Below, piece by piece: positions 11,638-15,878 of a stretch of DNA of 25,777 nt. Position 1 is the stretch's first letter. Every line of letters starts with the position of its first letter. Source of the stretch: a virus; the IMG/VR virus record IMGVR_UViG_3300050821_001977, positions 1 through 25,777 of that record; one strand, written 5' to 3'. The translations under genes were made by a program, and so were the position numbers. The notes beneath the pieces are model-generated. The model was not told where the DNA came from and ran no database searches. It worked only from the letters and a program-made list of their open reading frames with translations.

Positions 11638-12081
11638 ATGGTAATCGGGAACCGATACTTACAGGGAAGCCCGATTCTGCCGTATGCCAACGTCAAGGCA
11701 TACCCCGGCACGGATCTTTTTATGGATCTACAGTTCGTCGACCATACGAACACGCCGGTCATCCCGACCTCGATCAGTATAGAGATCGACGATATCACGA
11801 ACAGCGTGGTGATGGCAGGACCAACCACGTTGAGTGCTGCCGGCGCGACAGGTTCCGCCGGCACGCCGTTCACGTACCCAGCGTTCGCTGGGTCGATGTA
11901 TTTGCAGGTGCTGGGGTCGGCGTGGCAGATGACGTTCCCGTACATCGGGTCGCAGCTGTGCCAGGTCGGTATGCAGTTTACGGCCGTTGACTCAGTCACC
12001 GGCCAGCCGTTCACGTCGAACGCGGTCATCGCAATTGTGGAGCTGTGCGCGCTCGCTACGGTAAGCGGGCTCCCGTTTTAA
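11638..12081 (+). CDS. Putative virion protein
   Basis: A 147-residue protein from the ATG at 11638; an in-frame stop lies three codons upstream, so the start cannot be much earlier, although the ribosome site is weak (GGCGGTAA). It is beta-rich, few in charges (VKAYPGTDLFMDLQFVDHTN, TSISIEIDDITN, MTFPYIGSQLCQVGMQFTAV) and contains two Cys. It could be an immunoglobulin-like or tail-associated domain, but I recognise no family. It follows a 74-base gap and precedes the co-chaperonin pair. Confidence 0.55.
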   Translation: MVIGNRYLQGSPILPYANVKAYPGTDLFMDLQFVDHTNTPVIPTSISIEIDDITNSVVMAGPTTLSAAGATGSAGTPFTYPAFAGSMYLQVLGSAWQMTFPYIGSQLCQVGMQFTAVDSVTGQPFTSNAVIAIVELCALATVSGLPF

Positions 12082-12105: not shown

Positions 12106-12396
12106 ATGTCGAAGATAGATTTTAGCCAGCGGCTGCTGGATGACTTGATTGCGGTGGCGCTCCTGGATAAGGCTGAGGGCGTGATCAAGCTGCCGGATTG
12201 GCAGCGTATCCTGCGCGGCGAAGTCGTCGCGGTCGGGCCTGGACGGATGCTCCCGCTCGGCGAGCGCGCTCCTATGGAGTGCAGCGTCGGAGACATCGTC
12301 TCTTTCGCGGCCACCGCAGGAATGGACTCGGACTATGGCGTTGGAAAAAAGATTCGGCTCATGAAAGATACCGACGTCGACGCGGTGATCTTATGA
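12106..12396 (+). CDS. GroES-like co-chaperonin
   Basis: A 96-residue protein, the same size as bacterial GroES (97). From about residue 36 it follows the GroES fold: RGEVVAVGPGRMLPLGERAP, then MECSVGDIVSF, then KKIRLMKDTDVDAVI, corresponding to the RGEVLAVGNGR, VGDIV and final DILAIV parts of E. coli GroES. The segment EGVIKLPDWQR at about 24-34 is placed like a shortened mobile loop, with VIKL where GroES has its GroEL-binding IVL. It would cap host GroEL, as T4 gp31 does for coat folding. I chose the ATG at 12106 (AAGGTGAGAGG upstream) over a GTG at 12091. Its stop overlaps the next GroES-like gene. Confidence 0.85.
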   Translation: MSKIDFSQRLLDDLIAVALLDKAEGVIKLPDWQRILRGEVVAVGPGRMLPLGERAPMECSVGDIVSFAATAGMDSDYGVGKKIRLMKDTDVDAVIL

Positions 12397-12935
12397 TGCT
12401 CACCGAAGAATTAGAAGACGTCGGCCGTCGCACGCGAGTGCTACGCGATCGCGTGCTCGTGAAGGTACTCCCGTATGTACATCCGACGCTGGTAACTCCC
12501 GGTATCGAGGTACATAAGGGGGTAGTAATCGCGGTTGGCTATGGCCGGCGCCAGCGGCGTAAGGTCGCGTTCAAGCAAGAGATCAGCGACGGGCCGCCCG
12601 TGCTGAGCGCGGATGGAAAGGTCATGCAGTTCGCGAAGAGCAAGCTCTCGGGCAAGACGCTGTGGTTCGAGGACGGTCCAGAGACGGGCGCGATAATTCC
12701 GATGCAAGTGAAGCCAGGCGACGTGATCGAGTTCAGCTTCCGCAATATTACCTTCGTCGACTTCGATAAGGTAGGATTCCCGGGCATCGGCGACCTCGCG
12801 TTTGTCTGGCAAAAAGCGGTGTATAGCGTCGACCCGGACGAGTCGCTGAACGAGTGCCTGATGTGGCAGCAGAGCGCCGGCTACGACCGCAAAGGCAATT
12901 TTATGAGCGGGAGCGAAGATTGGCACCGGGCATGA
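12393..12935 (+). CDS. Second, enlarged GroES-like protein
   Basis: A 180-residue protein starting in an ATGA overlap at 12393. Residues 13-50 read TRVLRDRVLVKVLP, then TPGIEVHKGVVIAVGYG, the standard first half of the GroES barrel (RVIVK ... GGIVL ... GEVLAVG). Residues 107-118 (VKPGDVIEFSFR) match the VGDIV strand. Between them is an insert of about 50 residues with LSGKTLWFEDGPETGAII, and an extension follows residue 135. It is nearly twice GroES size, so it may pair with the first protein in a mixed ring, cap GroEL differently or have a new role. The tandem arrangement is clear from sequence; the functions are inferred. Confidence 0.7.
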   Translation: MMLTEELEDVGRRTRVLRDRVLVKVLPYVHPTLVTPGIEVHKGVVIAVGYGRRQRRKVAFKQEISDGPPVLSADGKVMQFAKSKLSGKTLWFEDGPETGAIIPMQVKPGDVIEFSFRNITFVDFDKVGFPGIGDLAFVWQKAVYSVDPDESLNECLMWQQSAGYDRKGNFMSGSEDWHRA

Positions 12936-14014
12936 GCGAGACAGAGCTAGGGTTCACGCCGCCGAAGCACCCGTGGGGCAAGTGGCCGAAGATCAAGCCG
13001 GAGACTGTGGCGCCGCTGCGTGACGACAAGCCGGACCTGTACAACTACATGCCGACCCGGTTCGTCACCAAAGACGAGGCGAAGGCCCGCGGCTGGAAAC
13101 ATTTTTGGGTCGGTGAGATCTGCGTCACCGGGCACCGCGCCGCGCGCTACGTCGCGAACGGCAGCATGTGCGTCGACTGCATCCGCATCGAGAAGGGTCA
13201 GCTGCCGGTGTACGGCAAGGGCGTCCCGGAGCTGGAGGCGGCGCGTCGCCGCAACTACACGCAGAAAAATACTGCGCCGGTCATAGGGCCGCCGGTACCG
13301 AACGCTGCAGAGAAAGCGTTCTTAATGAAGTACGCGGAGCTGAAAGACTTCGCGCTCGCCGCCGACGCGTGCGGGCGCACTGAATCTGAATTTTTGGCGA
13401 TACTGAGCTGGAACGTGACGTTCCGCGAGGCAGTGAACCGGCTCGAAGAGAGTATCGGCGTCGCCAGAACGCAGCAGGTAACGGAAGATTTTGATTGGAC
13501 CGACGACAAGCAGCGAGTTTTTCTGATCACGTACGCCAACACGGCGGACATGAAGCAGGCGCTACGCTCCGTCGGCGCCACCAACGTGCAATTCCACAAG
13601 GAGCTGACCGACAACTCGGACTTTCAGCGCGGTTTTGACGAGGCTACGCAGATTGCGCGGGCTGTGTTCGATCACGCGGCTGGCGCCTCAGCCATAAAGG
13701 GCGACGCGAAGATGCTCGGCCGCATCGCGGCAAACTTTTTTCCTGAAAAGTACGGTGAGAACCTGAAGGTGGACCTCAACGTCAAGCAGAACCTAACGTT
13801 GGACCAGGCACATGCGCAAATTACCAGCTTGCTATCAAGATTTGATCGACAGGGTCTACTCCCCGCTGCCAGAGTCTCTGACGAACTTGTTGAAGAAGCA
13901 GAATATCGGCTCATTGAGTCTGCAGGAGTCGACGAAGCTGATCCAGATCCTGAGCCAGCGGGCGCTGATCCAGGACCAGACCCAAATAGTGACCTGGTTT
14001 CAGGATCCGAGTGA
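12932..14014 (+). CDS. Putative terminase small subunit with N-terminal zinc motif
   Basis: A 360-residue protein from the ATG at 12932, overlapping the previous stop by four bases. Residues 62-83 hold a zinc motif C64-x3-H68-x11-C80-x2-C83 in the style of phage HNH enzymes. Two helix-turn-helix-like repeats follow at about 127-172 (ALAADACGRTESEFLAIL) and 192-236 (MKQALRSVGATNVQFHKELT). Next comes RAVFDHAAGASAIKGDAKML, then IAANFFPEKYGE, the pattern of terminase small subunits. These recognise phage DNA and feed it to the large subunit, encoded immediately downstream. From about residue 295 the frame overlaps the large-subunit gene and its codons turn AT-rich at third positions, so the acidic DP-rich tail is probably a later extension. 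Confidence 0.65.
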   Translation: MSETELGFTPPKHPWGKWPKIKPETVAPLRDDKPDLYNYMPTRFVTKDEAKARGWKHFWVGEICVTGHRAARYVANGSMCVDCIRIEKGQLPVYGKGVPELEAARRRNYTQKNTAPVIGPPVPNAAEKAFLMKYAELKDFALAADACGRTESEFLAILSWNVTFREAVNRLEESIGVARTQQVTEDFDWTDDKQRVFLITYANTADMKQALRSVGATNVQFHKELTDNSDFQRGFDEATQIARAVFDHAAGASAIKGDAKMLGRIAANFFPEKYGENLKVDLNVKQNLTLDQAHAQITSLLSRFDRQGLLPAARVSDELVEEAEYRLIESAGVDEADPDPEPAGADPGPDPNSDLVSGSE

Positions 14015-14720
14015 CCACCCGGCACTGAAGAACTGCCCGTTAGGTAGAAAACACTACCCGAAGCAGATGGAGTTCTTCACCAACGAGTCGATCGACGACG
14101 AGATCGCGCTCTTCGGTGGAAACAGGACAGGGAAAACACACTGCGGGTGCTTCGCGGACGCGCTGCACCTCACCGGGCTCTACCCGGCGTGGTGGCCGGG
14201 ACGAAAATTCAACAAACCCATCAATATGTGGGTAGCGACCGATACCGCGAAGAACACGCGCGATATTTTGCAAGAAAAAATGTGTGGTAAGCCGGGCGTT
14301 GAGCAGGCGTACGGCACCGGGATGATCCCCGGTGACCTTTTGGTGCGGCGGACGGTGAAGCACGGCCTCGCCGACGCGTTCGAGACAGTTTTCGTGCGTC
14401 ACGTGTCCGGCGGGCTCTCGACGCTGCAGTTCAAGTCGTACGACCAGGGCCGTGAAGCGTTCCAGGGTACGGCGCAGGACCGGATCCACCTCGACGAAGA
14501 GCCGAAGCTGGAGATCTACGCCGAGTGCCTGCTCCGGCTCATGAGCACGGTGCCCGGCGAGACGAACGGCACGCTGGTACTGACAGAGACGCCCATGCTA
14601 GGGGTCTCAGACCTGATGATCAAGTTTATGCCGGACCTGTCGCCCGAACCTGACGCCATGCCGGCGCAGAGCTGGGGTAACGAGGAAGAAGAGGAGGTCG
14701 TCGTCGATGAAAACGTGTAG
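13812..14720 (+). CDS. Terminase large subunit, ATPase chain (split gene, N part)
   Basis: A 302-residue chain carrying the packaging ATPase: Walker A GGNRTGKT at 102-109, Walker B IHLDEE at 225-230, and a coupling motif TLVLTETP at 254-261. It ends EEEEEVVVDENV at a TAG where intact terminases continue into the nuclease domain. The continuation is found in the same frame at 15108-15878, after an inserted endonuclease gene. Third positions in the first 203 bases, overlapping the small subunit, are GC-rich in this frame, supporting the early start at 13812, although the ribosome site is weak and later starts are possible. The chain would drive DNA translocation at the portal and must meet its separate nuclease chain to make a complete motor. 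Confidence 0.85.
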   Translation: MRKLPACYQDLIDRVYSPLPESLTNLLKKQNIGSLSLQESTKLIQILSQRALIQDQTQIVTWFQDPSDHPALKNCPLGRKHYPKQMEFFTNESIDDEIALFGGNRTGKTHCGCFADALHLTGLYPAWWPGRKFNKPINMWVATDTAKNTRDILQEKMCGKPGVEQAYGTGMIPGDLLVRRTVKHGLADAFETVFVRHVSGGLSTLQFKSYDQGREAFQGTAQDRIHLDEEPKLEIYAECLLRLMSTVPGETNGTLVLTETPMLGVSDLMIKFMPDLSPEPDAMPAQSWGNEEEEEVVVDENV

Positions 14721-15111
14721 GAATGGACACGCCGTCGGTCGCGATAAACACGGCACTTGTATTGAATGCGGTCGCGCTGCAGTAACACGGTACAGATCTA
14801 AAAACCGTTTGAAAGTAAACGCGCAAGCGGCGCAGCACTATCATAGCGACCCGGTGCATAAAGAGCGGGCTAAATTACGACGTAGAGTAGAGAAAGGTCT
14901 TCCGCAGCCAACGCGTCCAGAGCCAGATCTTTGCGAATGTTGCGCAAAAAAACCGGACAACCGCGCTCTATGTATCGATCACGATCATGAGACAGGAGCA
15001 TTTCGTGGTTGGCTTTGTTACAAATGTAACGCCGGTATCGGTATGCTGGGTGATAATGCGACTGGAATCGAGTTAGCTCGGCGGTATTTTCTAGCCGTGG
15101 AACTTACTTGA
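14707..15111 (+). CDS. Endonuclease VII-family HNH homing endonuclease inside the terminase gene
   Basis: A 134-residue protein. The N-terminal zinc motif is C4-x3-H8-x9-C18-x2-C21. The C-terminal half matches the recombination endonuclease VII family: CECC at 76-79, IDHDHETGAFRGWLCYKCN at 90-108 with catalytic D/H residues and the C104/C107 pair, then IGMLGDN. It starts 14 bases inside the end of the ATPase chain, and its stop overlaps a TTG that starts the nuclease chain (TTGA). It lies in a different frame from the terminase, so it is not an intein. It fills essentially the whole insertion, leaving no room for a group I intron core. Its AT-rich codons mark it as recently acquired. Confidence 0.85.
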   Translation: MKTCRNGHAVGRDKHGTCIECGRAAVTRYRSKNRLKVNAQAAQHYHSDPVHKERAKLRRRVEKGLPQPTRPEPDLCECCAKKPDNRALCIDHDHETGAFRGWLCYKCNAGIGMLGDNATGIELARRYFLAVELT

Positions 15112-15878
15112 AGGCGGTTTTTTTAGATATGGACGACGTCCCTCACTTGAGTGATATCGAGAAGAAGAAAATTCTAGCTGGAGTTCCGTCCTGGCAGCTG
15201 CAGGCGCGAAAGTCCGGCATACCCGGGCACGGTGTCGGCGCGATCTACCCGATACCGGAAGACGTGATGCTGATCCAGCCGTTCGATATCCCGGCGCACT
15301 GGCCGCGATCGTTCGGTATGGACCCGGGCTGGAACTGCACCGCGGTGGTCTGGTTCGCGTGGGACACCGACAACGGATTCAAAGACGCCTCCGGCAACCA
15401 ACGGTTCCCGGCGGTGGCGTACGACGAATACTACCGCGGCCAGGCGGACCCGGCCGTGCACGTCGCGGCGATCAACCGCCGCGGTCCGTGGATACACGGC
15501 GTCATCGACCCCGCCGCGCAGAAGGCGCGCGGTACCGACGGCGAGCTGTTGATTGATACGTACTGCAACTTAGGGCTCAAGGTCAGCAAGGCCGACAACA
15601 CGGTCGTGACCGGGCTCGTGCAGACCTGGGACATGCTCTCGACGCAGCAGCTGCGCATCTTCAACACACTGACGAACTGGCGCAAAGAGGTGCGCCTGTA
15701 CCGCCGCGACGAGAAGGGGAACATCATCAAGAAGAACGACCACCTCATGGATGCCACCCGCTACAACGTCATGAGCGGGTACGAGGTGGCGAAGGCGCCG
15801 CCCGCGACCGACGGCGGGCTCCCGTGGTTCAGCTGGGCGCCAGAGATGGCGACACACGGCGGCATATGGAGTGGGTGA
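15108..15878 (+). CDS. Terminase large subunit, nuclease chain (split gene, C part)
   Basis: A 256-residue chain from the TTG at 15108 in the TTGA overlap. It begins KAVFLDMDDVPHLSDIEKKK, the linker that normally follows the ATPase domain, and then has an RNase H-like nuclease domain: GMDPGWN with D72, GVIDPAAQ with D134, and NDHLMDATRY with D211 and D215. These acidic residues would bind the two metals that cut concatemeric DNA. No conserved residue appears lost, so the fragment looks functional rather than decaying. It needs separate translation, because at least two in-frame stops (14718-14720 and 14745-14747) lie between the parts. The two chains presumably assemble non-covalently. Confidence 0.85.
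   Translation: MKAVFLDMDDVPHLSDIEKKKILAGVPSWQLQARKSGIPGHGVGAIYPIPEDVMLIQPFDIPAHWPRSFGMDPGWNCTAVVWFAWDTDNGFKDASGNQRFPAVAYDEYYRGQADPAVHVAAINRRGPWIHGVIDPAAQKARGTDGELLIDTYCNLGLKVSKADNTVVTGLVQTWDMLSTQQLRIFNTLTNWRKEVRLYRRDEKGNIIKKNDHLMDATRYNVMSGYEVAKAPPATDGGLPWFSWAPEMATHGGIWSG

What the first reader, a model, noticed from the sequence alone, without database searches (positions are those of the whole stretch)
12106..12935. Two tandem GroES-like co-chaperonin genes in a podovirus
Both proteins show GroES barrel motifs: GEVVAVG with VGDIV in the first, GVVIAVG with PGDVIEF in the second. The first has GroES size and a shortened mobile-loop-like segment with VIKL; the second has an insert of about 50 residues and a C-terminal extension. 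They are coupled by ATGA. Known: single phage co-chaperonins such as T4 gp31 help coat folding by capping GroEL. A pair with one enlarged member suggests a mixed cap, division of labour, or a co-chaperonin turned to a new role.
Basis: partly seen in the sequence, partly recalled or inferred. Interest (0 to 1): 0.72.

Follow-up and report, generated by a model that had tools for sequence, protein, structure and literature searches.

The report
Phage paired GroES-like chaperonin-lid genes
A family of uncultured, mostly soil viruses of bacteria carries two side-by-side genes for the lid of the bacterial protein-folding machine GroEL, one ordinary and one enlarged at its roof and tail; every relative checked keeps both, which suggests that the virus fits the host's folding chamber with a custom, possibly two-part, lid.

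Summary
Gene 1 (P1, 12106-12396, 96 aa) is a Cpn10/GroES protein (Pfam 36 bits). Gene 2 (P2, 12393-12935, 180 aa) is below Pfam's cut-off, but two AlphaFold models match Cpn10 structures before all others, and its distant relatives in three contigs pass the Pfam cut-off. The genes overlap by ATGA.

The pair is a conserved unit. In all 54 distinct P2 loci with enough upstream sequence, P1 lies just upstream; 37 of them keep the 4-base overlap. It sits in a fixed late block: 147-aa gene, P1, P2, small-terminase-like gene, split large terminase, P22-type portal, scaffold and coat. No GroEL gene was found in 20 relatives.

P2's insert (about 43 residues) lies in the roof hairpin, the part that T4 gp31 lacks, and starts with GRRxRRK. 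Its predicted-disordered C-tail is its most conserved part. A different phage group (L067 and relatives) carries its own tandem pair of ordinary-size Cpn10 genes.

Best reading: two diverged lid subunits that act with host GroEL to fold virion proteins, probably coat. Mixed ring, two separate rings, or a repurposed P2 cannot be told apart from sequence. New variant of a known kind.

The parts
12106..12396 (+). P1: 96-aa co-chaperonin of near-standard GroES size; loop tripeptide IKL, VAVGPGR, VGDIVSF
   Evidence: Pfam Cpn10 36 bits, PHROG 3188; family profile hits solved Cpn10s, best 4.2e-16
12393..12935 (+). P2: 180-aa enlarged co-chaperonin with roof insert and C-terminal tail
   Evidence: AF2 models pLDDT 72 and 76; the 35 best Foldseek PDB hits all Cpn10-type; VIA Z 11.3 to Mtb Cpn10, 8.8 to T4 gp31; distant homologues pass the Pfam cut-off
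12393..12396 (+). ATGA overlap: P1 stop and P2 start
   Evidence: direct reading; the same -4 spacing in 37 of 54 loci
12474..12518 (+). P2 residues 28-42, mobile-loop position (YVHPTLVTPGIEVHK); L33 invariant in 38 sequences and next to GroES IVL in alignment
12552..12680 (+). P2 residues 54-96, insert in the roof hairpin, opening with GRRQRRK; its middle ~20 residues are missing in several relatives
   Evidence: alignments
12834..12932 (+). P2 residues 148-180, C-terminal tail (...QQSAGYDRKGNFMSGSEDWHRA), predicted mostly disordered but most conserved; absent in L121, L122, L124
   Evidence: pLDDT 36-56 from residue 151 in both models; lowest dN/dS of four P2 segments
11638..12081 (+). 147-aa gene of unknown function, directly upstream of P1 in nearly all relatives checked
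   Evidence: no Pfam or PHROG hit; synteny
12932..14014 (+). small-terminase-like gene, start overlapping P2 stop by ATGA (assignment weak, by position)
   Evidence: PHROG 4044 at 0.093 only; synteny

Best explanation
P1 and P2 are two diverged lid (co-chaperonin) subunits that a P22-type podovirus makes together, late in infection, to cap the host's GroEL and help virion proteins fold, most likely the abundant coat protein. Shown here: both belong to the Cpn10 superfamily, are adjacent and usually overlap, are under purifying selection, and stay together across a broad phage clade. Inferred: P1 binds GroEL through its canonical-like loop; P2 binds through its divergent HPxLxTPGI loop, or rides in a ring with P1; P2's enlarged basic roof and conserved tail adapt the dome to a client or dock it to another virion protein. 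A mixed P1/P2 ring and two separate homomeric rings are about equally likely on this evidence.
For: Cpn10 membership; P2 fold; P1 and P2 profiles align over the Cpn10 core at 92.5% probability. Fixed pairing, 54 of 54 loci, 37 with ATGA. Constraint on both. Conserved late-module neighbourhood up to portal, scaffold and coat. No GroEL gene in 20 relatives, so host GroEL is the likely partner. A different phage group has its own tandem pair. Precedents: T4 gp31 replaces GroES for coat folding (PMC6318259); chloroplast Cpn10/Cpn20 work as mixed rings (PMC4242682, PMC5780408); P22 coat folding depends on GroEL/GroES (title of Nakonechny and Teschke 1998, cited in PMC2267774; the paper itself was not read).
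Against: P2's loop lacks the usual GG[I/V]xLP, so its GroEL binding is unproven. Ring formation, stoichiometry, GroEL binding and client were not tested. Constant pairing may reflect operon linkage only. Most compared records are fragments, so lack of GroEL is not certain.
Confidence: 0.62

Rival explanations
1. P2 keeps the Cpn10 barrel but no longer caps GroEL. It has become an assembly factor, adaptor or virion protein that uses its basic roof arm and conserved tail to bind scaffold, terminase, DNA or another partner, while P1 alone is the co-chaperonin.
For: P2's loop is divergent; the conserved, predicted-disordered tail and the GRRxRRK arm look like binding segments; P2 lies next to the packaging genes.
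Against: The distant P2s of L121, L122 and L124 are close to plain Cpn10; the loop leucine L33 is invariant in 38 sequences; P1 always accompanies P2.
Confidence: 0.25
2. P1 and P2 form two separate homomeric lids with different clients: P1 a general GroES substitute, P2 a specialised lid. (A version of the main explanation, scored on its own.)
For: Both keep terminal strands that in GroES make subunit contacts (structural knowledge); T4 gp31 is a homomeric phage lid; Bdellovibrio has two groES genes with different timing (PMC3464611).
Against: Overlapping genes suggest simultaneous production; the two are never separated in 54 loci.
Confidence: 0.3
3. The pair blocks or redirects host GroEL, for example by displacing host GroES, rather than mainly folding phage proteins.
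For: No GroEL gene in 20 relatives, so any action is on host GroEL.
Against: Placement in the conserved late structural block suits assembly better.
Confidence: 0.08

Closest known systems
Bacterial GroES / Cpn10 (PF00166)
   Same: P1 matches by sequence and size; P2 by fold, core motifs and through distant relatives
   Different: P1 loop about five residues shorter than Thermus Cpn10; P2 has a roof insert of about 43 residues, an N-terminal helix and a C-terminal tail
T4 gp31 co-chaperonin
   Same: phage-encoded Cpn10 fold presumed to work on host GroEL (VIA Z 8.8 for P2)
   Different: gp31 is single and lacks roof loops (PMC6318259); P2 enlarges the roof and has a partner P1
Chloroplast Cpn10/Cpn20 co-chaperonins
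   Same: several diverged co-chaperonins in one compartment, shown to form mixed rings
   Different: Cpn20 joins two Cpn10 domains in one chain; here they are two genes with one domain each
Other phage GroES proteins (PHROG 3188, BFVD entries)
   Same: fold and annotation; several viral entries are also enlarged (about 125-200 aa)
   Different: no P2 relative in 50,697 annotated phage records

Membership tests
Cpn10/GroES (P1) | score over Pfam PF00166 cut-off | tested here: met
   36 bits against 21.1
Cpn10/GroES (P2) | score over Pfam PF00166 cut-off | tested here: not met
   18.6 bits; but homologues in L121, L122, L124 score 30.5, 26.3, 32.2
Cpn10/GroES (P2) | Cpn10 beta-barrel fold | tested here: met
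   Foldseek 4.1e-5, the 35 best hits all Cpn10-type; VIA Z 11.3, 86 residues, 2.6 A to 1p3h
Cpn10/GroES (P1) | mobile loop with hydrophobic tripeptide | tested here: met
   I-x-L in most family members; L111 is an exception
Cpn10/GroES (P2) | mobile loop with hydrophobic tripeptide | tested here: inconclusive
   loop present and low-confidence, L33 invariant, but sequence is HPxLxTPGI
Cpn10/GroES (both) | ring of seven and nucleotide-dependent GroEL binding | not testable with these tools
   no multimer prediction or assay available
gp31-type co-chaperonin (P2) | absence of roof loops | tested here: not met
   roof hairpin kept and enlarged
Cpn20-type co-chaperonin | two Cpn10 domains in one chain | tested here: not met
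   one barrel in each of two proteins

The most novel reading that the evidence does not exclude
A phage-encoded two-subunit GroEL lid: P1 and P2 assemble into one mixed ring in which P2 adds basic roof arms and a conserved tail that adapt the chamber to coat folding or dock it to the assembling head.
Probability: 0.3. Interest if true: 0.75.

Novelty: new variant of a known kind. Interest (0 to 1): 0.5.

Why it matters
Phage co-chaperonins such as gp31 showed how a virus can retune the host folding chamber by changing its lid. A conserved pair with one roof-enlarged member would be a natural test of how the lid controls chamber size and client choice, and perhaps the first phage mixed lid. 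A second tandem pair in a different phage group suggests the design is recurrent.

Tried and rejected
P2 and its distant homologue L122 gave no hit in annotated phages. A genome scan gave one hit, a contig of a Solirubrobacterales metagenome bin (L125); it carries the same phage gene block, and I do not take it as proof of host. A profile of the close P2 relatives alone barely matched the P1 profile or solved Cpn10s; the wider P2 alignment did match the P1 profile. A tree could not settle whether P1 and P2 come from one duplication: holding them together is not rejected (p-AU 0.217) and most inner branches are weak. Paper searches found no report of tandem phage co-chaperonins, but the main virioplankton chaperonin paper is not held. 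Readings rejected: P2 as an unrelated protein (fold result), and P2 as an ORF artefact (dN/dS and recurrence).

Full report
Observation. The window is a 25,777-base virus record. At 12106-12396 and 12393-12935 lie two overlapping plus-strand ORFs of 96 and 180 aa, sharing ATGA. P1 matches Pfam Cpn10 at 36 bits and PHROG 3188; P2 reaches only 18.6 bits against a cut-off of 21.1. The window's other late genes are P22-like: portal, scaffold, coat and head closure, plus a pectate-lyase-like tailspike.

P2 is a Cpn10-fold protein. AlphaFold models from two alignments had mean pLDDT 72.4 and 76.1. VIA gave Z 11.3 to M. tuberculosis Cpn10 and 8.8 to T4 gp31 for the second model, against 6.2 or less for non-Cpn10 chains. 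Most of the best viral matches that carry a name are annotated GroES proteins. Distant P2 homologues in L121, L122 and L124 pass the Pfam cut-off by sequence, and the P1 and P2 profiles align at 92.5% probability.

Anatomy. In alignment with Salmonella GroES (L138), P2's GRR matches the GRI of GroES and P2's ETGAIIPMQVKPGD matches DNGTVQPLDVKVGD; the extra ~43 residues lie between, in the roof hairpin (the name and role of the roof hairpin rest on PMC6318259, and general knowledge of GroES). The start of the insert, GRRxRRK, is nearly invariant; its middle ~20 residues are missing in L041, L052 and others. The C-tail, with low pLDDT from residue 151 on, has the lowest median dN/dS of four P2 segments (0.127, against 0.151-0.231). 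dS is near saturation in many pairs, so these ratios are rough. Whether the arm points into or out of the dome is not known.

Conservation. Scans of IMG/VR gave dozens of relatives. After removal of exact repeats, 54 P2 loci have more than 450 bases upstream, and all 54 have P1 there; 37 show the -4 overlap. Start sites were set by motif, and near-identical sequences count separately. Gene order is conserved to portal, scaffold and coat where the loci reach that far, even in L121, L122 and L124 at 37-42% P2 identity. No GroEL gene was found in 20 records, many of them fragments. The contigs come from metagenomes that I take, from one bog bin and from memory of the record series, to be mostly soil and peat; this was not checked record by record.

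A second tandem pair. L067 and relatives L126, L127, L130, L132-L134 carry two adjacent ordinary-size Cpn10 genes with different loops, such as GGIYMPE and GGLVLPG. The tree does not resolve how they relate to P1 and P2.

Mechanism. Shown: fold, pairing, constraint, setting. Inferred: binding to host GroEL, coat as client, ring type. gp31 is a homomeric phage lid without roof loops, so P2 goes the other way by enlarging the roof. Chloroplast lids show that diverged co-chaperonins can form working mixed rings. Overlapping genes are compatible with matched production.

Verdict. The finding is real and well conserved. It is a new variant of phage co-chaperonins. Interest is moderate until ring composition and GroEL binding are tested.

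Noticed in passing
window 13812-14720 and 15108-15878: The large terminase is encoded as two ORFs (ATPase part and nuclease part); the same split is seen in the 16 relatives checked.
   Followed up: partly
window 14707-15111; also L020, L090, L108, L033, L041, L124: Endonuclease VII-like genes sit at different places in this block in different relatives, including between the terminase halves and between P1 and P2, as mobile endonuclease genes do.
   Followed up: partly
L067, L126-L134: A different phage group has a tandem pair of ordinary-size Cpn10 genes with diverged mobile loops.
   Followed up: partly
window 11638-12081: A 147-aa gene without family match lies directly upstream of P1 across the clade.
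   Followed up: no
window 12932-12935: P2's stop and the next gene's start also overlap by ATGA, so three genes in a row are coupled in the window.
   Followed up: no
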